A stretch of 64,000 nt of DNA. Origin: Chrysoperla carnea (taxonomy: Eukaryota > Arthropoda > Insecta > Neuroptera > Chrysopidae). A program made the translations under genes and the position numbers. A model generated the notes under the pieces. That model worked only from the letters and a program-made list of their open reading frames with translations. It was not told the DNA's origin and did not search any database. Location: positions 64,706,181 through 64,770,180 of the forward strand of contig NC_058340.1 in assembly GCF_905475395.1 (NCBI RefSeq), given 5' to 3'. Positions 7,201-34,273 of this stretch are shown here, one piece after another (the stretch's first letter is position 1; each line of letters begins with the position of its first letter).

Positions 7201-10200
7201 ACATAAGTAAATATTTCGAGCCTTATAACGATGTAACTTTGAGAGTTTAAGGTATTTCGATCACTCTAAAAGTTAAACCTGAGTACGAAGATATTAGATT
7301 ATTACGTTTGATTGAAAAATTGATGTTACCGAAAATTTCTATTGTTTTATAGTTTATTAATCTATTAAAAATTTTTTACCTTCTTGGCATGTTCTTGTCC
7401 AACAACATGTTTTTCTAAATATTCATAAATTTTTTTTGGTGGTGGTGGAGGTTTTTTATACTGTCCAGTTTTATCAGCAGCTTTCTTTTTACTATCTGCT
7501 TCACTTAGTACAACAAAAAAATGATGACACTTATCGCATTTCACAAAGCGCGTAGAACTCACAAAAGTTTCAACTTGAGTACATGGATCACCACACTTTG
7601 GACATATTAAAGTATTTTTATTTTTACCCGAACCACCTGATGTTGTATTTGTTGGTGGCGGTGTAGTTGTCGGTGGTGGATCTTTATTTGGTGGTTCGGT
7701 AGTTGCTTTCCAAAATGGTGATGTTGTACTTATCGATCGTTCATTGTAATTGGGTTCATTATTAGCTGCTCGTGGAGCTCGAATTATGTATACTAAGCCT
7801 AAAAATAAATATTATTATCACACAAATGTATTTAAATTTAATTCTGTTAAACTTTGAATGTTAAGGACTAATTTTAATTATGACAAATCAGTAGATTTAC
7901 GCTACGGAATATTCTAAAGGCTCCAATATTTTATACTGATCAATCTAAGATAGATATTCGGATATCTGGATCACTGACCCTTAACGATATACAGACCGTA
8001 TTCAAAAGCATTGCTAATAGAGCATCAATGTTAATTAAATATGTTGGCGCAGAATTGTATTATTTTCAGGAAAAAGAGAAAATAATTATTGATACATACG
8101 TAATATTATTTATTCTCTTTGTGTGTAAGGTCCAACATAAATTGAGATAGTTCTATAGTAAATATTTTATTTATTTAACATTGATTCTCTATTGGCAATG
8201 CTTTTGTACACGGTCTGTATATGAAATGATATGACGTGTGGCAATATTATCCCAATCGATAGTCAAGCAGCAGTGCAATCCCTAAACACGGCGTGCATTA
8301 ATTTGACGAGCTTGCCAGGTATGATACACAAAATTCATCTAATAAATTGGTGCAAAAATCAATACTTATTTTGAAAAATACTCGAGTTCTCATTTATTAT
8401 CTTTGATAACACTTATACAACTCCAGGCCAACATGCTTTTTGACATAATGAAATTTGTGGTCATAGAAAATTCCACCTTAGTCTAGTCCCACACCTAGCC
8501 TCGAGTAATTAAATTACAGATTTCGTATGAAGTAATCTCAATTAAAACGAAAATAAACTAGGAATTGATTTAGAAACATTACGATTTCTGTAACAACAAA
8601 TACTTTTCGATAGACAATGAAAAGGTAGAACAATCAATAGTGGGTTTAGGTTTAGGCTATTCGAACACTATCGTGTGTTTAGCATGTGTCTCACGTTAGG
8701 AAACTTTGGAGAAGATGATTAGCGTGAACAGAATATTATCTAAATTTTTTGATATTTTCTCAGATTTAATTTTGCGTGAATGAAAGCTTTTATCTTTCAT
8801 AGATCTGCTAATAACAATTTTTATACCATGCATATATGTAATATGCAAGGTATACTAAGTTTAGTCCCAATTTTGTAACGCTTAAAAATATTGATGCTAC
8901 GAACAAAATTTTGGTATAGGTGTTCATAAAATCACCTAATTAGTCCATTTCCGATTTCTGTCCGTCTGTCTGCCAACACGATAACTCAAAAACGAGAAGA
9001 GATATCAAACAAAACAACCTTTGGTTGAAACATTTTTTCGTAAACATCACTGTTTACCCGTGAGGGCGTAAATTTTATAGTATGTGTTATATGGGAATAT
9101 CAGTTATGTATGTGTAATGTGATAGAGTAATCAACACTGTCTACGCATGGTATTTCAACAATTAATTCCGTCAATTGTTTGTTTCCACTTGTTTCACTTG
9201 AAATGCATTAATAAATTCGTGGGTCACAGGGTGGACGTAAAGTCGCAAGAAATAGCATTAACGTTAGATACACAATAGTGTTAAAATATCCATACCGATT
9301 TTAAAAAACTACAAAAATTGTAATAAAATTTAAACTTTTTCTAAATTATCTTTAATAAAAGGTAGGTATTATTTAATGTTATGATAAACAAGTGAAAACA
9401 AACAATTGACTGAGTTAATTGTTGAAATATCATGTATAAATAGTGTTGATTACTGTATCACATTGCACATACAATTTATATAAGACATACTATACAATTT
9501 ACGCCTAATTTGCGCCCTCACGGGTAAACAGTGATGTTTAAGAAAAAATGTTTCAAACATAAGTTGTTTATTTTTTGATAAGGAACATTTTTTACATGTA
9601 ATTTTTATTTCTATCGCTAACGGTTTACAAGATGGGCCCTACGGACCCATAGGTCGAGACTCAATTGACCTATGTTGCTCATTTACGAACTCGACCTCAC
9701 TTTTTACGTCCAGAGTACGCTGTAAAAATTTCATCTTGATATCTTTTTTCGTTTTTGAGCTATCGTGCCCACAGACGGATGGACGGACGGACGGACAGCC
9801 GGAAATGGACTAATTAGGTGATTTTATAACACCTATACCAAAATTTTGTTTATAGCATCCATATTTTTAAGCGTTACAAACTTGGGACTAAACTTAGTAT
9901 ACCTTGCATATTACATATATGCATGGTATAATAAACCATGATTCATGTTCATGGTTTATTTATCATATTTCCTATCAAAAATTTCCACACTTAAAATCCA
10001 AGTTTCTGAAAAATAACTAATCACTCAAAAACTATACTTCAGAGTATTGATTATTATATTAAAAATTCAGGCTTTTATCTCTACGTTCTTCTAAAGAACA
10101 TACAACCTAAAAATTTAGATTAAATTATTGTTTTTAAAAAGAATATATCATTAAGAATGAAACTTTATGAAAAATAGAATATTTTCTTTGTTTATTTGAA

Positions 10201-10378
10201 ATATAAGTAACCGAATTATTATTTTTAGTGTCTCAGAAATCGTAATCTCGTCATGCTACTTTAATTATATAAATATTAATATAAAAAAAAAGTAATATTT
10301 ACCATTTTGATTTGTAAATAATCTCGATATTGTTTTCAACTTGCTTGCAGTGGCTAATCGACATCTTACACCATTCAT
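4238..10378 (-). CDS. ClpX: ATP-dependent Clp protease ATP-binding subunit ClpX, mitochondrial
   Basis: An AAA+ unfoldase of the mitochondrial matrix that unfolds proteins and feeds them to ClpP. Exons, 5' to 3' on the minus strand: 10378-10303, 7798-7380, 7185-7056, 6814-6398, 5980-5796, 5727-5563, 5064-4843, 4450-4238; phases agree throughout and give 608 residues, close to animal ClpX. The N-terminus is rich in R, K, S and T with no acidic residue, as in mitochondrial targeting peptides. A zinc-binding domain follows with C91, C94, C113 and C116. The AAA+ core has Walker A GPTGSGKT (264-271), the substrate-gripping pore loop GYVGED (297-302), Walker [10 protein letters not shown] (326-334), the ClpP-docking LGF (411-413) and the sensor-2 GARGLR (530-535). 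A poly-proline stretch (142-146) precedes the core. Intron 1 (7799-10302) carries a MITE and two copies of the ~550 bp repeat. A polyadenylation signal AATAAA lies at 4196-4191. No critical residue is missing. Confidence 0.96.
7987..8223. mobile_element. MITE in ClpX intron 1
   Basis: A 237 bp element whose ends are inverted repeats of about 50 bases, starting ATACAGACCGT and sharing CAAAAGCATTG and ATCAATGTTAA. TATA occurs on both flanks of CAGACCGT...ACGGTCTG, so a TA or TATA target duplication is possible. Non-coding. Confidence 0.7.
8821..9194 (+). mobile_element. Helentron-like non-autonomous element, copy 1 (internally deleted)
   Basis: Begins TTATACCATGCATATATG and ends in TTGTTTGTTTCCACTTG. 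Compared with the copy at 20032-20590, the middle, from after 'gatatcaa' to 'ttgaaacattttttcg', is missing. It keeps the 3' hairpin and the inner copy of the 5' inverted repeat. It lies in ClpX intron 1, 190 bases from an inverted second copy. Confidence 0.75.
9387..9932 (-). mobile_element. Helentron-like non-autonomous element, copy 2
   Basis: Near full-length copy in minus orientation. On the minus strand it starts TTATACCATGCATATATG, has a GTCC/GTCT simple-repeat tract near 9780-9800, and ends with the hairpin around 9400-9425 followed by GTTTTCACTTGTTT. With copy 1 it forms a large inverted pair within the intron. Confidence 0.75.
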
Positions 10379-11242
10379 ATTCTAAATGATAATTTTTTTG
10401 ATGTTAAAATTAATTTTACTTACAAATTGATCTAAAGTTGTTAAAATAAAAAAAACTTGGAATTAAACAGTTTCATTTATGTGGATGTTATTTTTTTTAC
10501 GGATTTTCTAGAAATTTTTTTTGTTTTTCTTTATTTTATAACATGATGTCTAAAATAAATAATACAATCCCACAGATTTATTTTACACTTTTCATCAATA
10601 ATTTGGTTTTTCAAAATAATATTTTATGTAAATTTTCGTGATCTAAATAACTAATAAAGACATCTGTCACTCGGTGGCCATGTTTTTTTACTTTGATCAA
10701 CACTGCGTAGTTTCGTGATATACAAATTTTTCCCAAATAAAAAAAAAAATCTCCTGTATACGTATTTTAATTTCGTCACACACAAAAAAGATTATTTTAT
10801 TTTTATTCAATGTTTATAAATTAGTTAATTTTAATTTAAATCATAAACATTATTATTATCAATATATTGATAAATTAATTTTGAATGAAGATGTTATAGC
10901 TTAAAATTTGTTCGCGTAAATACGATAATTTCAATTTTTGAAATTCAAAGAGAACAAGGTTCTTGATAACCCCATACCTTGCCCCAAAATTAAATGCGAG
11001 GTCATTAGAAATATTGCAATTTTTTTGAATATACACATGGTTAATGCTTTGCATATCTAATTTAAAATAAATTGCAAACATGTTTTAAAAATTTATTCAT
11101 ATGATAACTTCGGTTTTTTGACTCAAGACAGAAAACCGTAAATTAACTTAATTAGATTTCAATTTATATGGCATTGACACTTAAATTAAATAATTTATTC
11201 AATATTGCCTTAATTATCATAATTAAAGTTAATTGGTTTTGA
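10379..11242. other. 5' flank of ClpX; AT-rich
   Basis: The 864 bases upstream of the ClpX start contain no gene or clear repeat. They should hold the ClpX promoter, but no core promoter motif could be assigned with confidence. Confidence 0.4.
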
Positions 11243-12120
11243 AATTGAACGAGATTAATAATTCTAAAAATAAAATTTCATTGTTGTGGTTCCGTTTACA
11301 AAAATTTTAAACACAGTCTATCGACTGATGATCTGAGAAATATTGCTACTATCGCATTTTTAAAGGAAATCTGTATAAAAACAAAACTTAATCTTGGAAG
11401 ATACTTTAAGGTCACACTCAAGGTTAAAAACATGTTGACCTTTAAATTTTCCACTTAAAATAACTTTCATATGTAACAAATTGCTACATCTTATCTGAAA
11501 TAAGCTCATATAAATCGAATTGCGCCCTGAGCAACTTTTAATTTACCGCTATTTCACCGAAGAGGGGCAAACAATTTAGTTACATTAATAGCCATAAAAC
11601 TTATAAACTCAGCCTCGGCCTTTTTCATACTTAATTTAAAGTTAAACCTCTAAAAAATCACGAAAAAAAATACCTAACTCGCAATTCGATCTATATGAGC
11701 TTATTTCAGAAGAGATGTAGCAATTGGTTACATATGAAAGTTAATTTTAAGTGGTAAATTCGAAGGTCAACATGTTATTAACCTTGAGTGTGACCTTAAA
11801 GCGTCTTTCAAGATTAAGTTGTCTTATATGCCGGTTTTCCACTAATCGGACAGTAATAAACTGTAATGGCCATTACATTGCTAGTCTTCAAAAAGTTTGT
11901 AAAAAGTTGCAGTTATGTTTTTTTCGACTCGTGTTTCTGTTTTGATTTTTTATTTCCGGGTTTAGTGGAAAACCGGCATTACCTATACAGATTTCCCTTA
12001 ACAATGCGATAGTATCATGATTTTTCAGATCCTCAGTCGAAAGACTATAAAATTTTTAGAAAAGGAACCTCAACAATGAAATTTTAGTTTTAGAATTATT
12101 AATCCCGTTTAATTTCAAAT
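11243..12120. mobile_element. Fold-back MITE with ~270 bp arms, carrying a second MITE
   Basis: The left arm (11243-11524) and right arm (11680-12120) are inverted copies sharing, for example, GATTAATAATTCTA, AAGGTCACACTCAAGGTTAA and AATTGCTACATCT. The central spacer is 11525-11679. The right arm is longer only because a 152 bp MITE sits in it at 11828-11979. Arm identity is high but not perfect. Non-coding. Confidence 0.75.
11828..11979. mobile_element. 152 bp MITE nested in the right arm of a larger fold-back
   Basis: Perfect 18 bp terminal inverted repeats, ATGCCGGTTTTCCACTAA at the left and its complement at the right. The matching position in the left arm of the host element (near 11375-11385) has no such insert, which proves the order of insertion. 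The target duplication is unclear. Confidence 0.8.
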
Positions 12121-13117
12121 CGATTTTTATGGAATTGCTGTCATTATAATAAAATTTTTCGAGTTTGAGCTGCACCCACGAGTGCGTACTGGACCCTTTT
12201 TATTAAAAGAATTAGTAGTAAATACAATTTTATTGTACTCTAATATTTAATTTAAAATTTACACAATACAAATCCAGGTGAATATGGCCTGTGGAGCTCA
12301 GACCAATGCATTTCTAATTAAGAAAATTATGATATTTCAATTAAATTGTAAAAGAACTACACACAAATTAGATTTTGGGTGTGCAAAAATTTCATAGAGG
12401 AAAAAATTGTTAGGTACGACACTCTGAAATGACTGTCAAATACTATAGACTCCAGGCCAGAGATGGCGAACCAATGACACGCGTCACAATATTTTGGGCA
12501 AGCCACCGATCAAGGAATTAATTACAAGTACAATGAAAGACTGAAATAAACAATCGACGTCTATGATTAAATATGATGGCAAAAATTGCCATACGAAAGC
12601 CGCAAGTTTCTCGGCTGCAAACCTTTTCCTCGGCATAGTAAACCTTTTCAAGAGGGGGAGTATTTGAAGGAAGCCTGGTTAGCAAGCGAGCCCTCACTTT
12701 TTGATTTCGAACTATTTGAACTATTTTTGCTGAAAAACGCGAAAAACCTATTTTTGCAAACTTCCCCCCTCAATAAAATTTTTGCATAAGGGGGATTGAT
12801 GGGGACTTTTCACAGTTCATTTATAATAGTATCCTGAACATTCATACCAATTTTTAGCTCTATGGGAATTTTTGTAACCTTCAAAGTGTAATTTGACTGG
12901 ATAAAAAGTAAATAGTTTTTGATAATAATATTTGTATTTAAATTTTTAAATATCTTATAAAATAGAAACAACATAATTTTAAATAAAAAATTACAATTTA
13001 GCTATAAATGAACTATAATATTATAATAAAAATAAAAGCAGATGATAATTTGTTTTAAGAATATAATTATAATTTTCTTTTGAATAATTAAAAATAAGAT
13101 TAATGAAAAAAAACAAT
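12121..13117. other. Intergenic region between ClpX and PGGT1B
   Basis: No gene is recognised. It holds copy 2 of repeat R1 at 12718-12903. The plus-strand frame at 12586-12789 overlaps this repeat and has no recognisable domain. Confidence 0.45.
12718..12903 (+). repeat. Dispersed repeat R1, copy 2 of 2
   Basis: Same orientation as, and nearly identical to, 598-800 from the C-run 'cttcccccctcaataaaa' to 'gtaatttgactggata'. A short part between 'ctatttttgctg' and 'aaaacgcg' differs by a deletion relative to copy 1. Confidence 0.7.
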
Positions 13118-15780
13118 CTATTGTGCTCGCCAATGCTCATGAATACTTTTTAAACGTTCAGCGGTTTGTAATGAAATTGCTAAACTAGGCATAATTTTCT
13201 TTAAACCTTTCTCATTCATTAAACTTAAACCACATAATCCAAAATATGTGTGTAAAGCATCCGATGAGTTATCCACTTGTTTGGCAAAACCACCGGTAAT
13301 TAAATTTTGTGTAGTCATTATATATTCACGATTTTTTTCGATATTAATAAATTCAAATGCATTCAATATTTTTAGGGCGGCCACCACCCAAAATGAGTAG
13401 CATGTATCGTCTGGTTTATTCGGTCGACCATGAAAACCTTGGCCTTGTTTCATTAACAACCATCGAATGAGTCCATCACGTTGGTTTTGTGATAAACTAT
13501 CTAAACGATTTGCAAGTGCTAATGTTGCTACAGCACAAAATGTTGATCCACCATGTGATTCTGTTTCTGGGCACTGTCCAATTGCAAAATCATAAGACTG
13601 AAAAAAAATTTGATGAAATTAAAACTTAGTCTTCCAAAGTTTTAAAAGTGAAAATACAGGCGATCTCTAAATGGTCGAATACATTTCTATGATCAAATAG
13701 ATAGTTCTAAATGTTAATGGTAACATACCCTACTATACCCTCTCTCAGACCGTATCTTTATATGGATGGGTCAAGGGTCGAAGATCTATCTGATACGTGG
13801 ACCTAGAATAAAAAACTCGATTCTTTTTGGTCAATATGCGACGGTTTTTCAATCAGAAATCTTCGTCATGCTGAGACGTGTCCAGATGTGCAACACGATA
13901 GGTTACAGTGGGGCACATATCCAAAAGGTTTCGGGCCCTTTAGGTATCCAGATTCCATTCGAAGGATAGTGCTTCGAGTAACTGAATCATCTTTCACTGA
14001 ATAACGTCAGTCTGATCTGGGAACCAGGTAAGTCTGGCGTTAAATGGAATGAAGCAGCGGATTCGTTAGCGCGAGAGGGATCGTCTCAGACGTCCGATTC
14101 AACTGAGTCTGCCATTCTTATAGAAAAATGTTTCGTAATTTATCGAATCAAGGAATGGCTATTACAAACTCATCTAACTGTGGAGTACATAGTTGAGAAG
14201 GGTAGTGGGATTCTCACTAGGACACTCGATTGAATTACTACCTTCATAACATGGGGATCTCTGATGTTTCTACTTTTAGGATCAATATGGAGGACGATAG
14301 AACCTCCATATATGTTACTTCTACAGAGCATCAGGTTTACAATGTTTGGGTACGACACCTTGGATCTATCAATCCTGGGAGAAATCCCGACGGAGAATCT
14401 GTGGGCTTTCATGCGTGGCGCCTGGCCTCGACATAATCCTATTGTTTTATCTGCTTAAAATAGCATCTCTACATCTCTTTCCCGGAGACGTCTCGCCTTC
14501 GGTTTGTTGTTCTCAACTTAGGTTGTTCTCAAGGAGGGAACGGTTCCTCTGTCCCTAGTCTAGGTGCTATATATGTATTCAAATATTCAGGATCCTTTTT
14601 TTATTGTACTAGCCACAGAAAGTGGGTAAAAAAACTGTTTACTTACAATAGAATTTAAAATGAATTCTACAGTTTTATCAATATCCATTCCAGACCAATC
14701 ATCTAGAATGTAAGATATGCATGCCGCACAATATACAAATCGCATATCACTTTCACTACCAACTAACGATGCCGTGAAATTTCCATCAGGTCGTTGTAAT
14801 TTACGTAAACCTATAAATTTTCACATGATAATTATTTCTCATTTTCATTATGGACCAAATTTTATTAAATTAATCTTACTTCTAACAATTGACTGTCTAT
14901 GGACTCGTGATAAATCGTCCCCTAATATTAAAAGCGTTGATAAAGCAGTGTAAGTGTGCGCTATAGCTCCACATTTGTACGTACTACGTTCTTTTAAGTA
15001 ATTAAATGCTGTTGAACCTTGAAAACCAGCTAATTCTCCTAGAACAAATTCGAAATAATATACGTTAAAAACTTTCACAAAGATCATGAGAGCAAATAAG
15101 GCACAGCACATTAAAATGAAAAAGGTATCTTTTGTCCTTTCACATTCTTTGTACTCGTGGCGCTGACATCTTAACGTTAAAATCTTTTAAGGCGTTTTAA
15201 AATCGCTTTGGTGCACCGCTTTGATAAGATTTCAAGCGGTATCTCAGAAAATATTCGTCTAATCATCAAATATACCCAATTGTTGTATTTTGAGTTCGGA
15301 AACAAAAATCATTACTCAATGTTTTTTAATGAGTATCCCAAAACTGTTTATAGGGTAAGTTTAAACAATTTTCTTCGAAAATACTGCCCGAAGAAATTAT
15401 CTGCAAATTAACAACGAAAAACTTCTCAAAAAAAATTCTTACCTTCATCATCGTAAACTTGTAAACTATATATCCAATTTATAATACTTTTCGCTTGATT
15501 TTCATTGAAAATATCTAAACTATTTAATACATCAAGACCTGATATGGAGAAAAAAGCTATAGTCATTCTGAAAAATAATATGAATTCATTTGACATTATT
15601 CAAAATATTAAATAAATCAAATATTTATTAAAATTTATTAATAAAATACCTTTGTGAATCTAATAACGAATAATGTTGTGGAACTAATTTTAAACATCTT
15701 TCAAAAAATCGAACATGTTCCCGTTTTCTTAATTTTTCTTGAGGGTAATTAATAATGTGCGCTTTATTATTTCGTTTCAT
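13118..15780 (-). CDS. PGGT1B: Geranylgeranyltransferase type I, beta subunit
   Basis: The catalytic subunit of cytosolic GGTase-I, which with the alpha subunit shared with farnesyltransferase attaches C20 prenyl groups to CaaX proteins such as Rho and Rac. Exons on the minus strand: 15780-15650, 15567-15443, 15038-14880, 14810-14647, 13597-13118; phases agree and give 352 residues, slightly shorter than the vertebrate protein. Family hallmarks are FQGS, HTYTALSTLLILGDDLSRV, DMRFVYCAACISYILDDWSGMD, ESHGGSTFCA, GFHGRPNKPDDTCYSFW and GGFAK...DALHTYFG. The three zinc ligands of the family are present as D257, C259 and H309. Intron 4 (13598-14646) contains a plus-strand LINE fragment. The start codon at 15780 is the only upstream methionine in frame in that exon. 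Divergently arranged with the proteasome alpha-2 gene. Confidence 0.95.
13745..14575 (+). mobile_element. LINE fragment: RNase H domain and 3' end
   Basis: Sits in PGGT1B intron 4, antisense to it. Conceptual plus-strand pieces resemble the RNase H region of insect LINEs of the I/LOA/R1 group: an SILFGQYATVFQSEIF stretch near 13815-13863 and WEPGKSGVKWNEAADSLARE near 14018-14077 (the latter is the usual PGHSGVxGNExAD motif). Several frame breaks show that it is dead. The 3' part (14190-14575) recurs at 28440-28780 and, inverted, at 38640-39010. The first half of the element, including reverse transcriptase, is absent. Confidence 0.75.
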
Positions 15781-16319: not shown

Positions 16320-16524
16320 CACGGATCTAGTAATTATAGTAGGGATGTAGTATAAAGTCCTACTTTAGACGAGCGGGGTGTATCACTCATACTTTCAGCA
16401 TGCGCCTAGTTAACAGCCAATAGAAAGTAGGCAATGATACCCTGCCTCTTCACCCTGAGTGAGACTCAGGGGGGACCCCACTCGATTATACTCCATTCCT
16501 TTTAAAATATTCCTATATCCATGA
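16320..16524. mobile_element. MITE family B, complete copy
   Basis: 205 bp with imperfect terminal inverted repeats of about 36 bases: one end starts CACGGATCTAGTAATTATAG, the other (on the minus strand) CATGGATATAGGAATATTTT, and both reach a shared ATGkAGTATAA. Related copies lie at 44144-44280 and 45017-45198. The interior has a GC-richer segment (near 16440-16490) than its surroundings. Confidence 0.7.
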
Positions 16525-17156: not shown

Positions 17157-19241
<2,085 letters not shown>

Positions 19242-21429
19242 AAAAGTTTTTTTTTTAACATCAACAATTTTACTTGTATCAATTTTTTTTCTAAATAAAA
19301 TTAAATATTCTTAACAAATTATTTTGTGCTTAATATTTATTCCTCGCATTAATTTAAAAAAAATTTTTGATGTGGACTTAATTATGAATCGAAAAAACTA
19401 AAGGATGGAGTGTTACAGAATGATTGTTGCAATAAATCATGCGTTAGTAGTGTGTCGTGACTATGGTAACTACATGAATAAAACTCATGAACGGGGCGAA
19501 TAGGCAAAGGACAAATCGAGGCAGACGTAGACTCTTTTAAGAAAACGGGGTAATTGCAAAAAGATTTGATTGTATGTAAGTTACAAATGAAGTTAATAAA
19601 AGCGTGTTAAAAATAAAATAATTTTTTATTTTTGTAGTTTATTTTCCTGGAAGTTAGGTTTTTAGATTTTAGGTAAGTTAAAGGGTAAACTTAGGTGTGC
19701 AATTTTGCTATTCGTCACTAGATTATGGGTGGTTCACGATTTGGATCAGCTTCACAATATTCCCCGTCATTTATTAAGCGTTCGCCATACAAACAACCAC
19801 ATTTTAAAGTGAGGTGGGTTTTTGATAACCTTTAGAAGTACCTACGCAAAATATGAACATTTAAAACTCCTAATTAAACAAAGAGGAAGGAAGATATCTT
19901 AAAAATTACGTCATTTTTGAGTATTGCCTCTTAGATATTACATAAAAAACTTTGTTTTGCAAAAAAAGACATGCAACAATCTTTCAAAAAATTTTCAAAT
20001 TTTGTTAGGGTATCAAGTCTAATTTTACATTTTTATACCATGCATATATGTAATATGCAAAGTATACTAAGTTTAGTCCCAAGTTTGTAACGCTTAAAAA
20101 TATTGATGCTATGAACAAAATTTTGGTATAGATGTTTATAAAATCACCTAATTAGTCCATTTTCGGTTGTCTGTCTGCCAACATGATAACTCAAAAACGA
20201 AAAGACATATCAAGCTGAAATTTGTACAGTGTATCCAGGACGAAAAAAGTGAGGTCGAGTTCGTAAATGAGCAACATAGGTCAATGGGGTCTTGACCTAT
20301 GGGTCCGTAGGATCCATCTTGTAAACCGTTAGAGATAAAACACTTAAATTTTTATGTAAAAAATCTTCCTTATCAAAAAGTAAACAACTTTTGTTTGAAA
20401 CATTTTTTCGTAAACATCACTGTTTACCCGTCAGGGCGCAAATTTGGCTTAAATTGTATATATGTATTATATGGGGATATCAGCTATGTATGTGTGGCAT
20501 GTATGTATATGTAATGTGATAGAGTAATCAACACTGTCTTTTCATGGTATTTCAACAATTAACTTAGTCAATTGTTTGTTTTCACTTGTTATGGGTAACA
20601 TGTGAACATGACAATTTCGATTTCAGTTATCAGTCCAAAAATTTTTAATTTACTTAAGAATTAAAATAAACTTTAATTATCTTAAAATCACAGTCTGCTA
20701 TCTTAATTATGGCGCATTAAAAATATTTAATTGAATAAAAACAATTACAAATTTATCTCTTTATCAAAAAAAAAAAATCGTTTAAATGATTTTTCTCGAA
20801 TTTCATACAGATATTTTAAAATAAAATTTAAAATTTTCGTATTTTGAAATATCATCCGATGTCTAATATACAATTTTTAAAGCAAAATTTTCAAATTTTA
20901 ATATTTTCCTTATCAATGAAAAACATTTCCCGAAATATTTATTATTCGCAACCAATAAAAATTTAAAATGTGTCCCTATTCTGATTGAATACATTACTGG
21001 AAATAATTCTCTTATCAATTGTGTTCAATTGTTATTGGTTCAAGTAAAAAAAATTCAAAGTAATTTCTAAATTTCAAAAAAAAAGTTGTCAAACTGAATA
21101 TTTTTATAAAAATAAAATTCACCAAAATTTTCGATTTGAATAATAAAAAGAAATGATTAAATAATTAAAAATTTGTAATTTTTTATTTAAAAAAGAATGT
21201 AAAATTAAAATTATTACATTTGAAAAGATAACATTATCTCTCATTATTATTATTATTATTATTTATACAGAACGAACGGGTGACCATGCATATCTATAAA
21301 ACAAAGTGGACTCGTCAATACCAACTCAACTGATTCAAAGCACAATATTGGTGCTGGTGCCTATTCGTAATATGATAATTTATCAGATTTGTATGTTTTT
21401 ATGGTTTTGACAGATGTGTCAAACGAATT
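19242..21429. other. Intergenic region between PSMA2 and Hrd1
   Basis: Holds the PSMA2 3' end, one Helentron-like copy (20032-20590), a short (ATT)n microsatellite near 21240-21265 and the Hrd1 promoter region. No further gene is recognised. Confidence 0.5.
20032..20590 (+). mobile_element. Helentron-like non-autonomous element, copy 4
   Basis: Full-length, plus orientation, between PSMA2 and Hrd1. It shows the 5' TTATACCATGCATATATG, the central GTCTGTCTG tract near 20170, the inner CATGGTATTTC at about 20543, the hairpin and the terminal TTTTCACTTG. A good reference copy for the family. Confidence 0.8.
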
Positions 21430-24400
21430 ATGAAAATGAGGTCTATTGGAATTACTTTTGTTAGTTTTATATTAACATTTATTGTTGTTGGAAATGCATA
21501 TTATCAAAAGAAACAGTTTTATCCATCCGTGGTATATATCACGAAATCGAATCCATCTATGGCTGTAAGTTTTTCGCAAACAAAAAAAAAATTTTCTACG
21601 TTTTTATCCAAATAATTTTTATATTTCGTGTTCGATTTAGGTATTGTATATACAAGCCTTTATTGTGGTTTTACTGATTGGAAAATTAATGAGAAGGGTG
21701 TTCTTTGGACAGTTACGTGCCGCAGAATTTGAAGTATGTTCAAAGCTAAATAATAAATTTTTTTAACGATGACTTATTTTGCTTGATTTGATGTGTTTTA
21801 GCATTTGATGGAAAGATCTTGGTATGCTGTGACGGAAACATGTTTAGCGTTTACAGTATTTCGAGATGATTTCAATCCAAAATTCGTGGCATTGTTTACT
21901 GTGCTGTTATTTTTAAAATCATTCCATTGGTTAGCAGAAGATAGAGTAGATTATGTACGTATTAAAATTTTCTTAATTTTATATTTGGGTACAAAGTTTT
22001 TTTTTTTTGTTTAGTCTGCTTATAAAATTTTCGTTATTCGGGTAAACTTTGATAATATTACCGTTTTAAGAAAACTTTCCAACAATATGTTTAGTTAATT
22101 ATGTGGACTTTCTTAATATTTTTAACCGACTTCAAACCAAAAAGGAGGAGGTTATCAATTCGACTGTATTTTTTTTTTTATATTTGTTACCTTAGAACTT
22201 TTGACTGGGTAAAACGATTTTGATGAATTTTTTTTTATTTGAAAGCTGGTGCTTCCCGTATGATCCCATTTCAGTTTGGTCCAGTTCTGACAATGGCATC
22301 CATGAGAAAACCATATAAGTCTTAAATTTGCATTAAGTATGTGCGCGACAAATGGACGAATAACTCAATATCACGCCAACCAATTTCGATGATTCTTTTT
22401 TTAGTGACAAATTAGTTAGTGTACTTCAGATTCACTAAAAATCATAAAATAAAAAAACTTTTAAGAAAAAGAAAACCGACTTCAAAAAGTAAAATAATAA
22501 AAATGCACTAAAAAATAAAAAAATAACGACAATATAATGTAGTTATAATTATTGTTATTTTTGGAGTCGGTGTCAGCCAAGTTAATGTAGCAAACTGTTC
22601 TGTCACATTTGTTTCCTTGGCTGACACCGACTCCAAAAATAACAATAATTTTAACTACATTATATTGTCGTTATTTTTTTATTTTTTAGTGCATTTTTAT
22701 TATTTTACTTTTTGAAGTCGGTTTTCTTTTTCTTAAAAGTTTTTTTATTTTATGATTTTTAGTGAATCTGAAGTACACTAACCATACTTTGAATAGATAA
22801 ACTATAGTAATCAAGTAAAAAACATTTTTTTTTGACGGTTCCCATGTTTTGAAGTCTCTTGAATCCGTTTTTCCTATCGTTTGAAGAACATGATTTTTTG
22901 AAGAATTGGACAGAAATCTGACACCTTGTGCAAATTTCCGAAGTACTACTGAAGTTCAAAACATCTCCCTGATTATTGACCATTACTATTAGTTCAGATA
23001 ACACGCTATATTGCATATATTGTCCATAAATATTAGAACTTTTACACTTTAGCAGTTAAAGTGTGGTGGCGGCCATTTTGTTGTAACGTTGAACCATAAT
23101 TTGTGTACATTTAATTTTAATAAAAAACAAGTGAAAACAAACAATTGATTGAGTTAATTGTTGAAATACCATGCAAAGACAGTGTTGATTACTCTATCAC
23201 ATTACACATACACGTATATGATGTATGTCTCACATACATAACTGATATCCCTAAAAAATACATACTATACAATTTACGCCTAATTTGCGCCCTCACGGAT
23301 AAACAGTGATGTTTACGAAAAAATGTTTCAAACAAAAGTTGTTTATTTTTTTATAAGGAAGATTTTTTACATTTAAACTTTTGTTCTATCTCTAACGGTT
23401 TACAAGATTGGTCCTACGGACCCATAGGTCAAGACCCACTTGACCTATGTTGCTCATTTACGAACTCGACGTCACTTTTTACGTCCTGAATAAATTTCAG
23501 CTTGATATCTTTTTTCGATTTTGAGTTATCGTGTTGGAAGACAGACAGACAGACAGACGGACAGAAACCGAAAATGGACTAATTAGGTGATTTTATAAAC
23601 ACCTATACCAAAATTTTTTTCATAGCATCAATATTTTTAGGCGTTACAAAATTGGGACTAAACTTAATATACTATGTATATTTCATATATACATGGTATA
23701 ATAAATGTTCCGTTCTTAATAGAACAACCTGTATACTAGATATTGTATGGTACCCAACTTCAAAAAACTACTCATACAAAGTGATTTTGACCTAAAAAAA
23801 TTGGGTTCATTCAACAGTTTTTCATACACCCGAGCCAAGTTACAAATTTCGATAATTAAAAGATTTTTTATTTTAAATTCTAGATGGAACGAAGTCCAGT
23901 AATTGGTTGGATATTTCATTTAAGAGTATTAAGTTTATTACACGTACTTGGATTATGCGATATGTACTTCGTAGCACACGCATATCAATCAACTATCACT
24001 AAAGGGGCATCTGTGCAACTAGTATTTGGATTCGAATACGCGATATTAATGACAATGGTCATAAATGTGACCATTAAGTATGCGTTGCATTCAGTTGACT
24101 TGCATAGTGATAATCCATGGGAAAATAAGGCTGTTTTACTATTGTACACAGAATTAATAATGGGCTTCATAAAAGTCATACTATACATTTCATTCGTAGC
24201 AATTATGGTTCGTATTTACACGCTACCATTATTTGCGTTCCGACCGATGTACTATACGATGCGAAACTTTAAGAAAGCATTCAACGATGTCATACTATCG
24301 CGGCGTGCAATACGAAATATGAACACGTTGTATCCGGATGCAACGCCAGAAGAGTTACAGGCAGCGGACAATGTGTGTATTATATGCCGAGAAGAAATGG

Positions 24401-25571
24401 TTACTGCATCAAAGAAATTACCATGTAATCATATCTTCCATACGGCTTGTTTACGATCATGGTTTCAGAGACAACAGACTTGTCCTACATGCCGATTAAA
24501 TATTTTACGTCCTATTTCACAAACTAGAAATGTAGCTGGTGCTCAACAACAACAAAGAAATGCTCAACCTCCACAACCTGCTGGTAAGTAGAAATAATTT
24601 TTGTCATTTGACAATATAGGTCTAAAATCAGGTGTGTTATTTAACAGTCACTTCAAAACGGCTCTAAATTTGAGACGTTGTTGTTAAAAAAACTTCATAA
24701 TAACAATTGAAAACGAAACACAACTTTTTTAGAGACATTTGCTCATATTTGTCAAAGGAAGTACTGACTGTGTACTGTTTACAAGGAGACAAAGAGTTGC
24801 TCAACGAATGATTAGCATATCTGACATTCAATTTACACAAACCAGAACGGTTATGCATCTGGGAGCCATCTTAAATTCAAAACTGAGGTGTTAAGAATTT
24901 GAATATGGCATTCTTAACTTTTTTTATTATTATTAATTGCAGGTGAGGGAGCTGAAGCAGCTGCAAATCCATTTCAAATGTTTGCGGGTGTCAATCCATT
25001 CCATATACCACCAATGTGGGGAGCACCACCAGCGCCACCTGCACGTGACGCAAACAATGCACGAAACGGTGCATCATCATCAACAACAACGCCACCACCA
25101 ATTCCACCACAATTTTTACCGCCATTACCACCTTTTGCGTTTATTCCATTTACTGTACCACCGCCACTACCAAAGTTATCAACATTATCGACTGAAGAGT
25201 TAAAACGACTTGAGGGTAATGAACGTGAAGCAGTTGAAGCACGAATACAACTATTACGAAACATACAACTAATGTTAGATTCATCGGTTGCAATGATGCA
25301 ACAATACACTTTTGTGGCGGGTACGTCACAAACAACTACTAGGGATCCTAAAGATACTAAAGATAAGGATAGTTCTAGTGAAGAACAAGGGTCATCAACA
25401 ACAGCTACATCATCTTCAGATAGTAACACAACTTCTCAGCCAGATGTTGTATCCACTTCTAATAGCAACGCGACACAAGCAAATCTAGCACAATCAACCG
25501 AACATAATGAGATACGTATGCGTCGTTTACAAAGGTTTCAAGCTGAACAAACCGCAAATCAACAACAATAA
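21430..25571 (+). CDS. Hrd1: E3 ubiquitin-protein ligase HRD1 (synoviolin)
   Basis: The ER-membrane RING ligase at the core of ER-associated degradation. Exons 21430-21564, 21641-21733, 21802-21954, 23884-24583 and 24943-25571 join in phase to give 569 residues. A multi-span N-terminal half carries conserved blocks (AYYQKKQFYPSVVY, VFFGQLRAAE, ERSWYAVTETCLAFTVFRDDF, GASVQLVFGFEYAILM, DNPWENKAVLLLYTE), then MSRRAIRNMNTLYPDATPEE in the form LSRRAIRNMN. The RING-H2 spans C292 to C330 with pattern C-x2-C, C-x-H-x2-H-x2-C, C-x2-C intact. The C-terminus is a proline-rich then Q/N/S/T-rich tail. A second in-frame ATG at 21436 is an alternative start. Intron 3 (21955-23883) carries a long perfect-looking hairpin and a Helentron-like copy. 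A possible AATAAA lies at 25938-25943. Confidence 0.96.
22128..22782. mobile_element. CCGACTTC-family element ending in a 167 bp palindrome
   Basis: Starts near AACCGACTTCAAACCAAAAA and contains the GGAGGAGGTTATCAATTCG segment typical of a widespread insect interspersed repeat (from memory, not verified). Its last part is an inverted repeat: arms 22415-22581 and 22616-22782, each 167 bases, nearly identical (at least one mismatch, near 22548), with a 34-base loop. The element lies in Hrd1 intron 3, so the hairpin is transcribed in the pre-mRNA. No coding frame. Confidence 0.8.
23126..23702 (-). mobile_element. Helentron-like non-autonomous element, copy 5
   Basis: Full-length, minus orientation, in Hrd1 intron 3, 344 bases beyond the palindrome. 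The simple tract here is (GACA)n-like near 23545-23565. Ends as in the other copies. Confidence 0.8.
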
Positions 25572-27617: not shown

Positions 27618-27692
27618 AAGGCTGCTTTTACAGGGCTATATTATTAGTTCTAATTTATGTGGAGAGATTCTCAATCAAGAGGAGGGGATTTG
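27618..27692 (+). repeat. Dispersed repeat R2, copy 1
   Basis: Same orientation and clear similarity with 51625-51697; both contain TTTACAGG, CTATATT, GATTCTCAAT and GGAGGGG. No coding frame. Confidence 0.5.
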
Positions 27693-28052
27693 AACACTCA
27701 TCTTAAAATAGTGCCCTGAAACTTTGAAGCACCCTGTATATTTCGCTTTGCGTGTATCGTATAAAGTTTGCAATTCGTTTTTTTTACTTAATAAATACTG
27801 CAATAAAAATTACTAAATAATACACTATTTCATTCCTATTTGAAAATCATTTATTTACCTAAAAATTAACAATAAATTAGCAAAAATATAGTAATAAAAA
27901 ATCAATTTTCGTTAAATTAATTATTCTATGCCTTGCATTTTATAAATTATACAAAAGAAAAAAATATTTACATTTATAATAAATTATATAGTTTAAACAA
28001 TATGAAATATTACAAAATTTCACTAACAAAAAAATTTGACTAGAATTGTTTA

Positions 28053-31000
28053 TTAATTTGAATTATCAGCAGCTTCCTGATTACGTGGTGTTCGTTGATT
28101 ACGTGGACCACTTCGACGTATTTCATTTAAACAGGCTAACATGCGTATCATAAAGGCAGCCGGTACTGTTATTGTATCACGTGTTTCCTCCAACATTACT
28201 TCGTTGCGATCAGTTAGCTGTAAAATATATTAAAATTCAATTGAAATACCCGAATCGGATATGAAAAATACAAAATACAGTCAATTCACGGATGGAATTA
28301 CCAAGAAAACAAAAACTTATCTTCTTAAAAGTAATTGTTTATAAAAATCCCTGCTTTTCGAGAAAATTTCATAAATGTTTGATCAGACTTTCGTGTATTT
28401 TATTTAACGAGATTTGTTTCGTTTGAAATTCCGTAATTTACCGACTCACGAAATAGCTACAACAGGCCCATATTGATTACCGGGACTCTGTGCAGTGCAT
28501 GCAAAATGCCAAACTGGTTATAACCACAGCTAGGCCATTCGACTGTGATCGCTTGAAACTCAATAGAGCATAGTGGAGAACGGTGGTAGGACTCTTGACA
28601 GAACACTGTCGATTGAACTACTACCTTCATAACAGGCAAACTCTGATGATTCAACTTGTAGGGCCTGTATGGAGGACGATGAAATATACATACATGTTAT
28701 TTGCACCTGCAGAAACCTGCAGAGTGTCAAGTTTATAATTTTTGGATCCAAAACCTTGGATCAATTCCGGCCCAATTTACCCAATAAGTTTTAAACAATA
28801 TCTAAATATTAATTGACGTACCTCTTTCACTAAATCCAAATTAAAATCGGTTTCTTCTCCATTTGGAGACCAAATTTTTACATCGTAATCAATACCGGAT
28901 GTTGCAAGAATTGGATAGATTGGATGTGGTTGAATACAATTGACAACGTGTTGATCACCTTGTAATAACATCACTATTTCTCCAGTAAATCTATCCCACA
29001 CAAATATATGCCCACAATCTGAACCGGACATCACATATTGGTTTCCATAAAAACTGACCTCTTTTATCATGGTTCTGTAATAAATTATTAATTTAAGTTT
29101 ATTAAAACCACACTTTATGAGACTATCCAGAATTCTGGAAACAAACTTTTCAAATTTCAATTTCAATCAGATCTGCTCTTCATTGGAACTCAAAGAGATC
29201 AAGACGAAGAAGACCTTAAACTTGCTGATACCCAATTAACGATAAAGTGACTCTTTTTGGAAAAAACTGAAGGTTGTGTAAATTAGTAACCCGTAATAAA
29301 AATTCATCAAGAAAGACCTTCTTTTAGTTCTTTAGTTTCAAGTTTTTTATTTCTTAGAACCTGTAAAATCGCGTTGGTTGTTCTGGACAGTTCTTCGGCC
29401 CTTTATAGCTTCGCCCCGGCAAGTAGGCACTTGCCTACTTTGTCTTATGGATAATTTGCCTCTTGTGACTTGAAGCAAAGCTAGATGGCGTCATATAGTT
29501 GCGACGCTGAGCTTGAAGAATAAAAAAAGATATTTTAGAACGAGTTCATTTATCAATTACTTTTCAATCGCATTTCCGATTTCGTCTTGCTATCACTATT
29601 ATAATTCTAGAAAATAAATAAATTTAAAAAAATTATTACCTAGCATTTCTATGGCCTGTATATTTTCGTTTAACTTTTGGCATAATCGTGTCTTGTTCAT
29701 CTAAAAATGTTTCGTTCTCGATTGTATTTCGACTAGATTGATTTGCAAAACCACTAATTTCATCAAAATTGTACACAACAGGCTCACTTTCTGCCATATC
29801 ATTAAAATCAGACGCTTCTTCCCCTTCTTCAAATGTATCCACACTCACATCATGACGATTAGCTGTTACGGGCACTTCGGGTTCGCCACCAATTGATAGA
29901 GTAGATAATCGATTTGCGGTACCGCTAGTAGATGGCACAGTCTCGTCATTAGGAACAGATTGAGCTGTTGAATTTTCCTGTATTGGAGAACTTTCAACTG
30001 TTTGAGTATCACCTGATTCGGTGGGATTATTATTAGTTGCTTGAGCTGTGGCATTTTGCCGTCGAGCATTTGTTGAGCGTCCATTAAGTGCTGCTCGTGT
30101 ATGAGGATCATTTAGCATACGTGTTAAAACATCAGTCATTCGTTGCATTAAAGTTGCTTGAAGCTGAGGTCGAGCTTGACCAATACCATTATTTACATTA
30201 ATTGCTTCTCGTTCAGGGCGAGCATCTGGTCCGGTATCAGACCAATCACCACGTAAACGAAGTTTTCTGACTCGTCTTTCACCTCCATTTCCATTATCTT
30301 TGTTTGAATTTGAATTTTTATTGTCTAATGTGCATAATTTCTTCGCAGATGGATCCTTTACACCGAAAAGGTAAATATAATCCGACGAATAACTAACTAA
30401 AAGATCTTCACCATCAGGACTGTAACAAACACTCGTAATTCGATAATATTGTTGATCTAAGCACGGTGCCATAAAACAAGCAATTGGTTTTAATAAACCT
30501 TGATTTTCCATATTGCTTTTCGATGTACTTAAAGTACGTCGATCGAACGTTCGAACTTTACCATCCGAGCATCCAATCGCTAATTCATACGATACGTTTT
30601 CATTGATACATAGTGCTGTAACCGCACGTCGATATGTCATTAATACATCGTCGGTACAACGTAGTTTATTACATTGTCGTTTAACACGTAAATCAAAAAA
30701 ACGTACTGTTCCATCTTCGCCACAACTAATAAAACTATTCGGATCGTTTGGAATCGTGACTATATCGTATGTAGTACCATTATGGCATAAAAATTTATTA
30801 TATAGCGTTTCATCCGGTTTATTTAAATCTGTGTACAGTATAACACCATCTCCGGAACATGATACTATTTGGGAATCACAACAATTTGGCATAAATTTTG
30901 CACTAAATATATTAGCTCGATGACTTGTACGATATGAAGTTTGTAGTTTACCATAAAATGGATCTGATATGACTAAATGTTGATCGTCTGAACCGGATAG

Positions 31001-32162
31001 TAGTAAATTACCGCGTTCATTCCAACATAACGAATTAACACAACCACGATGTACGTTTAAACTTTTTTGTAAACGAAAACGTTGAACTAAATCCAAACTA
31101 TCTGGAATTTAAATAGTGCGGATTAAGAGAGGAGCAATTTTCTTCTATTACAAGTAATTATAGCAAATATATAGTTCGGAGCTTCATTTCGTATCTCGGA
31201 AACTTATCGTTCTATCGTAAAATCAATCAAATTTTCATTCCGTTGATTTATTATAGATAATGAGGACCCAAAAAGATAAAAATTCAGATCGTTTGATTAT
31301 TAGATGAATATTTGTTGGAATATCTCCAAAATAGTTTCGAAATAAAAGCTTTTCGCACTGGATACTCACTCAATTGTTAAATGAACCCGATTTTTTAATT
31401 TTTTGGGTTAAAATTACCCCCTAAATCAAGATTCATTAAATCCTATAAGACTTTTTTTCTAGCCCTAAGGATACCCCTCAGAAAAATTTTAAAAAAATCG
31501 AGAAAATCATTTTCTAGAACAAATTTGATCCAAAAAGTACAAAAATGGGGTAAATTTGATTATTAAACAAAGTATAGTTTCTGAGATATCGATTAAAATT
31601 GTACCCGAGGGATGATTTCTTGGAGCAATTTCTTCATTTCGTATCTCGAAAACTTAATAGTTCAATCGAAAGATTAAATTTCATTTATTATCGAAATACT
31701 AAATGGTAACAATAAAATTGCTACTATTGCAATTTGTTGACGAAAAAAGGACATTTTATAAACATTGATTTTCCATTTATTTTTTTCTCAGAGTCGTTAA
31801 GAAAAATGATTCAAAAATTTTGAAAAATTGAAGAAATAATTGTTAATGACAAAAAAAAAAAAACAAAAAATTTCAAAATAAAATCCATGTTTTTTTTTTA
31901 ATGTTCCAATCACAACAATTAAAATTTTTTCAAAACCTGAAATTTGGAAGGTGGGCTAACATCGCATGCATAATAATAAAACATTGAGCATTGACCTAGC
32001 AGCATCCAATATACATAATTTCTAATCAAAAAAACTTAAAACGTAATTAAAAATCATTAAAAACTAACCTTTCGCAGCCGTATATAAATTGATACAATTA
32101 TTTAGATCATAACTTTTATAATAAATACTATGAAATATATCATATTTACGACGAAATTCCAT
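28053..32162 (-). CDS. DCAF6: DDB1- and CUL4-associated factor 6-like WD-repeat protein
   Basis: A likely substrate receptor of CUL4-DDB1 ubiquitin ligase (vertebrate DCAF6/NRIP also acts as a nuclear-receptor cofactor). Exons on the minus strand: 32162-32069, 31101-29640, 29074-28822, 28217-28053, in phase, 655 residues. WD repeats begin at [25 protein letters not shown] in the form [12 protein letters not shown] (residues ~47-80) and continue to [10 protein letters not shown] (~268-277); two more follow near the C-terminus ([29 protein letters not shown]). DDB1-contact motifs FDLR (~167) and FDRR (~217) are present. [12 protein letters not shown] (~311-322) and the end block [19 protein letters not shown] are strongly conserved in DCAF6. 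The middle (~350-500) is low-complexity S/T/N and acidic. Intron 3 (28218-28821) holds a LINE relic. Head-to-head with TRAM1 at 2.5 kb. Confidence 0.94.
28440..28780 (+). mobile_element. Relic of RNase H-type LINE, 3' portion
   Basis: In DCAF6 intron 3, antisense to the gene. Similar in order to 14180-14380: a GTGGGATTCTCACTAG-like stretch, GATTGAACTACTACCTTCAT, then GGAGGACGAT and a block ending at the repeated 'accttggatc'. Heavily decayed. Confidence 0.6.
31140..31700. repeat. AT-rich repeat with recurrent 'stress-like' motifs
   Basis: In DCAF6 intron 1. Repeats of TTTCGTATCTCGAAAACTTA, TTTTTGGGT(T/C)AAAAT and GTTTCTGAGATATCGA occur twice or more here, and also at 42930-43390; 60160-60470 is a weaker relative. 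The family is unknown and the boundaries are approximate. Confidence 0.4.
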
Positions 32163-33116
32163 TTTAATAATTATATTATAAAAAGAAAATGCTCAACAAT
32201 AAAAATGTTTTACGAATTATTTTAAATCTACTTTTCCATCATAATATTTATCAAAATTATTTGACACATTTTTTGAGACATTATTGTTCTATTTGCTTTT
32301 AGCATTGACATATATTTTAGAAATAACTTTTTGCACTATTTCAAACATATCCTATGTAATAAATTTTTCATAAAACATGTATATATATTTTTAATATTAG
32401 ATATACTTAGATATGTCTTACGAAATCAGATAGAAATTTATTTTTTTTACGGTGCTCATAAATAAATTTTATATGACAATTTTCAATACAAGGAAAAATT
32501 CTTATGTAATTATACTTTTGTACTTGACTTTCATATTAATAATTTTCGTCTAAATATCAGGGCTATATATAAATATAAATTTAAATTGGAATGTATTATT
32601 ATGACAAATTTTAGTAATTAATTTAGAAATAAATAATCTAGAAAATCTTTGTGTTATATTTATTTAAACTTAATAATAGATAATAAAAAGTTGTGCAAAA
32701 AAAAGTTAATTGCAAGATCGTTAATCACGAATTTTTGATTTATCACATTGCTTATTATATTACCGATTTCTAATTTAGAAAAAAAGCGGTATGTGCAGAA
32801 AGCCAAAAATGGCATCCTAGCTACTAAAGTACCGCAAAGTTCCCAGGAAAAAAATTGGCCATACTATTATCGTCATATTGGCAGTTTGTTTTTTTGTTTT
32901 CATGAAATTTTGGGTTCTGTAACAGCCATTATTTACATTTAGGGACCTTAGCACCACCTTCTGAAAAAATTTATACAAATATTAAAAATAGACACTGATG
33001 ATGGATCATACATACTTTGGATCTTACCAGCCTAGACAAAAATTTATTGGATCCAGAGCCGGACTTAGCCATCTATAGGCGACTCGAGTGATTTGATTAT
33101 AATTTAAAAATCCTAT

Positions 33117-34273
33117 TATACCATGTATATGAAATATACATAGTATATTAAGTTTAGTCCCAAGTTTGTAACGCTTAAAAATATTGATACTACGAAAAAC
33201 AAGTGAAAACAAACAATTGACTGAGTTAATTGTTGAAATAACATGTATGGACAGTGTTGATGCACAATAGTTTGTTTTTTTAACGTCACGTAAATAACAA
33301 AAGATATTCACTTTTAAATAGACACACACACAACTGATATTCCTATATTAATACATACTATAAAATTTGCACCTAATTAACGCCCTCGTGGGTAAACAGT
33401 GATGTTTACAAAAAAATGTTTCAAACAAAAGTTTTTTATTTTTTTATAAGGACCATTTTTTATATTTAAACTTTTGTTCTATCTCTAACGGTTTACAAGA
33501 CCCAATTGACCTATGATGCTCATTTACGAACTTGACCTCACTTTTTACGTCCTGAGTACGCTGTAAAAATTTCAACTCGATATCTTTTTTCGTTTTTGAG
33601 TTATCGTGTCCACAGACGGACGGACAACCGGAATTGGACTAATTAGGTGATTTTATGAACACCTATGACAAAATTTTTTTCCTAGCATCATTATTTTTAA
33701 GCGTTAAAAACTTGGGACTAAACTTAATATACTATGTATATTTCATATATACATGGTATAAAAATTTGGTTTAGGTGTTCATAGAATCACCTAATTAGTC
33801 CATTTCCATATGTCTGTCTGTCTGTCCGTCTGTCATCACGATAACTCAAAAACGAAAAGAGATATCAAGCTGAAATTTTTATAGTATGCTTAAGACGTAA
33901 AAAGTGAGGTCGAGTTCGTAAATGAGCAACATAGGTCAATTGGGTCTTGGGTCCGTAGGACCCATCTTGTAAATCGTTAGAGATAGAATAAATGTTTAAA
34001 TGTAAAAAATTTTCCTTATAAAAAAATAAACAACTTTTGTTTGAAACATTTTCTTGTAAACATCACTGTTCACCCACGAGGACGCTAAATTAGGTGAAAA
34101 TTTTGTAGTATGTATTAATATGGGAATATCAGTTATGTGTGTGTGTGGCTATTTAACAGTAGAAATCTTTCTTTATTTACGTGACGTCAAAAAAAAAACG
34201 ATTGCGTCATTAAAACTGTCTATACATGGTATTTCAACAATTAACTCAGTCAATTGTTTGTTTTCACTTGTTT
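33117..34273 (+). mobile_element. Helentron-like element, copy 6, interrupted by copy 7
   Basis: Plus-orientation element whose first 80 bases (33117-33196, ending '...gatactacga') and remainder (33761-34273, starting '...aaatttggtttaggtg') join at exactly the point where uninterrupted copies read 'gatgctacgaacaaaattttggtata'. The gap is filled by a full minus-orientation copy of the same family. Confidence 0.85.
33197..33760 (-). mobile_element. Helentron-like element, copy 7, nested in copy 6
   Basis: Full-length minus-orientation copy with 3' end GTTTTCACTTG at the left and the 5' end TATACCATGTATATATG at the right, inserted into an A-rich point of copy 6. It must be younger than its host copy. 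Confidence 0.85.

What the first reader, a model, noticed from the sequence alone, without database searches (positions are those of the whole stretch)
8821..34273. A repeat family with Helentron-associated (HINE/DINE-1-like) architecture
Copies 8821-9194, 9387-9932, 18491-19048, 20032-20590, 23126-23702, 33117-34273 (split) and 33197-33760 share one plan: a 5' end with ATACCATGyATA, a central tract of GTCC/GTCT units that varies in length, an inner reverse copy of the 5' motif (CATGGTAT) about 50 bases from the 3' end, a hairpin AACAATTAACT-AGTCAATTGTT, then GTTTTCACTTG. A 5' motif repeated inverted just before a 3' hairpin, plus a microsatellite core, is the plan described for non-autonomous Helentrons. 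No terminal inverted repeat and no clear target duplication is seen, which also fits.
Basis: partly seen in the sequence, partly recalled or inferred. Interest (0 to 1): 0.7.

Follow-up and report, generated by a model that had tools for sequence, protein, structure and literature searches.

The report
DINE-1-like jumping DNA with its Helentron
Seven copies in this window belong to a short, non-coding rolling-circle jumping element of a well-known type, and the same genome also holds a long relative that encodes the enzyme likely to move it, so the find is real but of a familiar kind.

Summary
The window holds seven copies of one element: 8821-9194, 9387-9932, 18491-19048, 20032-20590, 23126-23702, and an outer copy 33117-34273 split by a nested one, 33197-33762. 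A 3'-end scrap lies at 1035-1061. The plan is that published for DINE-1/HINE elements: 5' subTIR ATACCATGyATA with a partial inverted copy beside it, GTCY microsatellite, central unit, 3' subTIR about 40 bases from the end, short hairpin, CACTTG. In 56 copies measured the 5' flank is WTT in 55; no longer target duplication is general. At the one clean paralogous empty site, two extra T are present, the known DINE-1 ambiguity. Its 3' 66 bp match the element at 92%; its 5' ~580 bp match an intermediate ~975 bp subfamily at 90-92%. The window element is most likely a Helentron deletion derivative. C192 differs by one subTIR base, so a sister Helentron may be the real mover. Other transposase classes were not searched. 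New member of a known kind.

The parts
8821..9194 (+). copy with an internal deletion (369 bp between subTIR start and CACTTG)
9387..9932 (-). full-length copy
18491..19048 (+). full-length copy, subfamily A; 94-97% identical to the 39 other best-scored genome copies
18494..18505 (+). 5' subTIR ATACCATGTATA of that copy
   Evidence: sequence
18513..18524 (+). inverted repeat (IR) TATACATAGTAT pairing with the 5' subTIR
   Evidence: hairpin -6.1 kcal/mol, z -3.8
18628..18643 (+). GTCC/GTCT microsatellite (4 units in this copy)
   Evidence: sequence
18637..18902 (+). central unit, present once here, twice in subfamily B, and in two places in the Helentron's 5' region (one of them partial)
18996..19007 (+). 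3' subTIR TATGCATGGTAT (inverted copy of the 5' subTIR)
19011..19033 (+). 3' hairpin AACAATTAACTCAGTCAATTGTT
19040..19045 (+). 3' terminus CACTTG, followed by target T's
20032..20590 (+). full-length copy, another subfamily (best other genome copies 87-91%)
23126..23702 (-). full-length copy, just upstream of a synoviolin/HRD1-like exon
33117..34273 (+). outer copy, interrupted by the nested copy
33197..33762 (-). nested copy inserted in a T-tract (A-tract on +) of the outer copy
1035..1061 (-). 3'-end fragment (27 bp, 96%)

Best explanation
The repeat is a non-autonomous Helentron-associated element (HINE) of the DINE-1 type. Shown: it has no frame of note, shares end sequence, subTIR/IR plan, GTCY tract, central unit and 3' hairpin with an 11.4 kb Helentron on contig C192 of the same genome, and sits in T-tracts with about two extra T and no general longer duplication. 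Inferred: the Rep/helicase/endonuclease of this Helentron or a close sister nicks T-rich targets and copies the element from its 5' T-subTIR end to the 3' hairpin-CACTTG end by rolling-circle transposition. Also inferred: a ~975 bp subfamily (B) arose by internal deletion of a Helentron, and the ~555 bp form (A) from B or directly, by loss of one central repeat unit.
For: Anatomy in 44 A-type copies (37 of 39 fetched genome loci plus 7 in the window; L056 and L073 missed by the motif scan, three spurious motif pairings dropped) and in 11 of 11 fetched B-type copies (two further rows with wrong 3' ends dropped). C192:9034-20460 minus: 5' TTATACCCTGTATA..., IR AAGGGTATA, (GTCC)n, ORF, 3' CAGGGTATT-hairpin-CACTTG; ORF of 2,144 codons with PF14214 (2.7e-21), PIF1 PF05970 (2.6e-28) and PF14529 endonuclease (4.2e-5 on the domain alone). 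Rep motif RIEFQQRGSAHVH with S after RG, the Helentron signature given in PMC4067079 section 7. Four B copies compared: first 540-570 bp 90-92% identical to the Helentron's 5' end, last 65-73 bp 85-94% to its 3' end. Flanks of 56 copies: position -1 T 56/56, -2 T 55/56, -3 A or T 56/56; right +1 T 55/56, +2 T 51/56. Empty sites: 8 of 8 fetched paralogues of the L042 site read GATTTTG against GATT + TTTTG when occupied. No frame of 130 codons among the nine listed in the window lies in a copy.
Against: The C192 Helentron differs from HINE A and B at subTIR position 6 (CCC against CCA), so by the published rule of 11 identical subTIR bases it is not strictly the same family, although the 3' 60-bp rule (80%) is met at 92%. 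Identity to A is 88-92%, below the 96% among the A copies. The endonuclease match is under Pfam's curated cut-off (23.8 against 27.4 bits). No second ORF of 80 aa was seen 3' of the gene where an RPA gene might lie; the 5' part was listed only in part. A's segment 412-493 has no match in the Helentron. Direct repeats near the ends are somewhat commoner than in mismatched flank pairs: 7 or more in 5 of 56 against 1.2 expected, 8 or more in 3 against 0.7; in an earlier form of the test 39 of 500 shuffles reached the observed mean, with one spurious pairing still among its 45 rows. I put this down to AT-rich flanks resembling themselves, untested. The 3' hairpin shows no compensatory change, and other empty sites give +3 T or are unclear.
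Confidence: 0.95

Rival explanations
1. It is a MITE of a cut-and-paste DNA transposon, with a TT target duplication and subterminal inverted repeats.
For: The clean occupied site carries two extra T over its empty sites, as a TT duplication would give; inverted repeats exist near both ends.
Against: The 3' inverted repeat lies about 38 bases inside the end; the one coding element found with these ends encodes Rep/helicase/endonuclease. Cut-and-paste transposases were not searched for, so their absence at such ends is not shown.
Confidence: 0.03
2. It is a HINE, but moved by another Helentron of this genome, past or present, with C192 only a cousin.
For: The C192 subTIR differs at one base from HINE A and B; other Rep hits exist (64 matches), and for most of those fetched only 1.5 kb of flank was held, so their ends were not seen.
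Against: Among the coding loci searched (L009-L038, L078-L081) only C192 had a significant match to the element; the endonuclease search (7 matches) found one other close relative, broken, at C4:76.28 Mb, 90-97% in two pieces, the rest at 32-33% or a short piece.
Confidence: 0.3
3. It is a non-autonomous canonical Helitron (5' TC, 3' CTRR, A-T insertion).
For: Many Helitron-type Rep genes exist in this genome.
Against: Ends are ATACC...CACTTG, insertion is in T-tracts rather than A-T, and the coding relative carries an endonuclease and the RGS Rep signature.
Confidence: 0.01

Closest known systems
DINE-1 / INE-1 of Drosophila (Yang and Barbash, PMC2374699; passages read)
   Same: subTIRs beginning ATACC, partial IR beside the 5' subTIR, GTCY microsatellite, central repeat, 3' stem-loop, insertion in WTT with a TT gain that can be read two ways
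   Different: different subTIR sequence (D. melanogaster ATACCCGTTACTC); the ~90-bp Drosophila core was not compared; host here unidentified
HINE / Helentron of Metaseiulus, Culex and Drosophila (Thomas et al., PMC4067079; passages and section 7 read)
   Same: HINE as internal deletion derivative of a Helentron with Rep, PIF1 helicase and endonuclease in one ORF; T-rich targets, no longer duplication; identity to the Helentron (88-92% here) lies within the 84-99.9% reported for the mite
   Different: mite HINEs have palindromic subTIRs and no IR; the mite Helentron also has an RPA ORF, not seen here 3' of the gene; Drosophila DINE-1s were 98% identical to their partners, here 88-92%
Helitron2_Cv of Calliphora vicina (PMC3630058; passages read)
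   Same: DINE1-like, 11-bp subTIRs, IR, GTCY tract, hairpin with 9-bp stems
   Different: 750-bp consensus; sequence not compared because it is in a supplement
Cg_HINE elements of Crassostrea gigas (PMC7492417; passages read)
   Same: subTIR, IR, GTCY-like microsatellite, central tandem repeats, 3' palindrome, TT preference
   Different: arrays of satellite-like repeats in the centre; here one or two central units

Membership tests
HINE / DINE-1-like (non-autonomous Helentron) | subterminal inverted repeats of 11-15 bp, the 3' one 38-60 bp inside the end | tested here: met
   12-bp subTIR with few mismatches; the 3' copy ends 38 bases before the end of CACTTG in 18491-19048
HINE / DINE-1-like (non-autonomous Helentron) | IR partly complementary to the 5' subTIR (DINE-1 form) | tested here: met
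   IR found by motif in 41 of 44 A copies; hairpin z -3.8 in the one copy folded
HINE / DINE-1-like (non-autonomous Helentron) | GTCY microsatellite | tested here: met
   44 of 44 copies, longest run 2-6 units
HINE / DINE-1-like (non-autonomous Helentron) | 3' palindrome/stem-loop | tested here: met
   present in A, B and C192 with small variants; energy no better than shuffles
HINE / DINE-1-like (non-autonomous Helentron) | insertion in T-rich TT sites with no longer target duplication | tested here: met
   56 copies, with a small excess of chance-like repeats; clean empty site; TT gain ambiguous
HINE / DINE-1-like (non-autonomous Helentron) | autonomous partner with shared ends | tested here: met
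   C192:9034-20460, one subTIR base different; activity not testable here
Helentron (C192 element) | Rep and PIF1 helicase with C-terminal endonuclease in one ORF | tested here: met
   endonuclease below Pfam's curated cut-off
Helentron (C192 element) | Rep signature with S in RG(S)xHxH and (F/Y)xR before it | tested here: met
   YYYRIEFQQRGSAHVH (signature)
Helentron (C192 element) | RPA ORF (reported for the mite Helentron) | tested here: inconclusive
   no other ORF of 80 aa in the 2.3 kb 3' of the gene; 5' part only partly listed
Helentron (C192 element) | same family as the HINE by 11 identical subTIR bases | tested here: not met
   ATACCCTGTATA against ATACCATGTATA
canonical Helitron | 5' TC, 3' CTRR, insertion between A and T | tested here: not met

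The most novel reading that the evidence does not exclude
The 5' subTIR, its IR and the distant 3' subTIR change together: A to C at position 6 in the C192 5' subTIR is matched by T to G in both its IR and its 3' subTIR. This would mean that the two ends are recognised as one paired or symmetric unit and that Helentron lineages shift end specificity as a set, stranding older HINEs. It rests on one element.
Probability: 0.2. Interest if true: 0.45.

Novelty: new member of a known kind. Interest (0 to 1): 0.25.

Why it matters
It gives one host genome in which the whole series is present: an 11.4 kb Helentron with an open frame, a ~975 bp derivative close to its 5' ~580 bp, and the ~555 bp form, with paralogous empty sites. 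That makes the derivation of HINEs and the TT ambiguity directly readable, but it repeats what was shown for mites, mosquitoes and Drosophila.

Tried and rejected
Rejected: MITE and canonical Helitron readings (see rivals); other transposase classes were not searched for. Loci L009-L038, L078, L080 and L081 had no significant match to the element, but L009-L038 hold only 1.5 kb on each side of the Rep match, so their ends may lie outside. L078 and L080 come from OTU-Rep-helicase elements; L078 has the Helitron-type RGL motif. The broken endonuclease relative at C4:76.28 Mb showed no HINE end in the two stretches fetched. Covariation of the Y/R position between 5' and 3' subTIR within A was looked for and not seen: the 3' copy is mostly GCATGGTAT whatever the 5' base. 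Empty sites: L066 was uninformative because the flank varies in length. L039 gives a six-base tract in 3 of 3 (one with a C in it) against T5 + T3, but its flank also differs by 6 further bases just downstream, so it supports +2 only loosely. The nested copy and the L067/L075 pair gave about +2 to +3 T without a certain ancestor. No telomere array was seen in eight chromosome-end stretches, one of them N where shown, so the host was not identified. The endonuclease domain had no PDB match at 0.01. The first alignment of empty sites failed by letter case and was repeated. Papers: passages only, plus section 7 of PMC4067079; others were seen only in search listings. I do not claim that this family is absent from print (searches; no Repbase or Dfam at hand).
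Full report
Observation. The named copies are present. With the full-length copy 18491-19048 as query the host genome (559 Mb, 337 contigs) gave 2,696 first-look candidates, of which 40 were scored; the 39 other than itself are 94-97% identical over nearly the whole length. Copy 20032-20590 gave 11,777 candidates; of the 40 scored, the 39 others are 87-91%. Six window copies (the split one left out) are 84-92% identical to one another, so at least two subfamilies lie here. Only 18491-19048 is close (mean 96.5%) to the fetched genome copies, which were picked for likeness to it. Those 37 copies are 94-98% alike (mean 96.3%), so their identity is not an unbiased age.

Ends. The scan took L039-L077 (39 loci, the best-scored copies other than the window's own) and found 37 copies, missing L056 and L073. 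To these were added seven in the window, after dropping three spurious motif pairings (L055 internal, window 33729 and 25883). Eleven copies of a longer subfamily came (two rows with wrong 3' ends dropped), and the Helentron itself made 56. The base before ATACC is T in 56 of 56, the second T in 55, the third A or T in 56; the first after CACTTG is T in 55 and the second in 51. This agrees with the rule published for ten D. yakuba DINE-1 insertions, WTT (PMC2374699, passages).

Target duplication. No direct repeat of fixed length stands out (k 2-10). Near the ends, repeats of 7 or more occur in 5 of 56 against 1.2 expected from mismatched flank pairs, and of 3 or more in 14 against 14.8. I attribute the small excess of long ones to AT-rich flanks that resemble themselves; one, L050, is a TAT microsatellite. 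In the earlier form of the test 39 of 500 shuffles reached the observed mean (45 rows, one spurious). Joined flanks of L042, L066 and L039 were searched in the genome (75, 41 and 50 matches). I fetched 8, 3 and 3 of them. All 8 for L042 read GATTTTG where the occupied site has GATT + TTTTG, a gain of two T. The 3 for L039 have a six-base tract (one with a C) where the occupied site has T5 + T3, but a further 6-base difference lies just downstream, so this is weaker. L066 was uninformative. The two T are either part of the element or a TT duplication, the same ambiguity reported for DINE-1.

Partner. A search for the Helitron Rep domain (PF14214) gave 64 matches in the genome and none in 14 control genomes. 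Among the coding loci held (L009-L038, L078-L081) only that of contig C192 had a significant match to the element. Its element runs from C192:20460 to 9034 on the minus strand. It begins TTATACCCTGTATATATT...AAGGGTATA and has a GTCY tract of 15 units. Sequence like the central unit lies at 731-997 and 1867-2072 of the 12.5 kb strand read, in which the element is 540-11966. The element carries a 2,144-codon open frame and ends CAGGGTATTTCAACAATTAACTCAGTCAATTG...CACTTG. The protein matches Rep, PIF1 and, under the curated cut-off, an endonuclease, with the Helentron form of the Rep motif. The endonuclease search gave 7 matches: C192, two pieces of one broken relative at C4:76.28 Mb (97% and 90%), and four distant or short ones. 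Other transposase classes were not searched for.

Derivation. The Helentron's first 461 bp recur widely (4,945 first-look candidates, 40 scored). The 11 fetched besides C192 are 955-1008 bp elements with ends close to ATACCATGTATA and TATACATGGTAT. In the four compared, the first 540-570 bp match the Helentron's 5' end at 90-92%, then follows a second central unit, and the last 65-73 bp match its 3' end at 85-94%. The window's A form matches these at 93-94% at its start and 93-95% from 147 to the end. The simplest course is Helentron, internal deletion to B, loss of one central unit to A. The order is inferred.

Mechanism. In the model of PMC4067079 (passages) the endonuclease may nick a T-tract; that Rep acts at the 5' end, the helicase unwinds and copying stops past the 3' hairpin is recalled from the general rolling-circle model. 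Here only the sequence features are shown; every enzymatic step is inferred. That the subTIR base change in C192 appears at all three sites (5', IR, 3') is a single case in favour of joint recognition.

Setting. The copies lie among ordinary animal-type genes: proteasome subunit, synoviolin-like, WD40, PACRG-like and myosin exons. The host was not identified.

Verdict. The system is a new member of a known kind.

Noticed in passing
G000:C3:3767553-3809834 (L080): Seven Rep hits on one strand, six of them about 5.81 kb apart and the seventh 12.7 kb further, apparently a tandem array of OTU-Rep-helicase units; in L080 the frame is broken and the OTU-bearing start of the next unit follows.
   Followed up: partly
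G000:C6:1.6-12.8 Mb: 35 of the 64 Helitron Rep matches (pieces counted apart) lie on contig C6, 34 of them between 4.3 and 12.8 Mb, many with stops.
   Followed up: no
L013-L023: Eleven Rep matches on several chromosomes share one score (197.5 bits); six of the eleven have frames of 1,462 codons, which looks like recent amplification of another Helitron.
   Followed up: no
L079:2380-8814, N-terminal part: The Helentron protein carries about 12 near-identical 21-residue repeats (KLRREDEIYKRAEQAENSLAH type) before its Rep domain.
   Followed up: partly
C192 element, positions 9221-9516 of the element: A ~300 bp imperfect palindrome (76%) lies between the Helentron gene and its 3' end.
   Followed up: no
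window 23126-23702 and 23884-24588: A HINE copy ends about 180 bp upstream of a synoviolin/HRD1-like exon.
   Followed up: no
L105-L112 (both ends of C1, C2, C3, C5, 500 bases each): No TTAGG or TCAGG array was seen; the start of C2 reads N where shown, and several ends show long repeat-like sequence shared between chromosomes.
   Followed up: partly
G000:C4:684431-684688 and the matches: The L042 insertion lies in another abundant repeat whose copies often come as inverted pairs with ~140 bp arms.
   Followed up: partly
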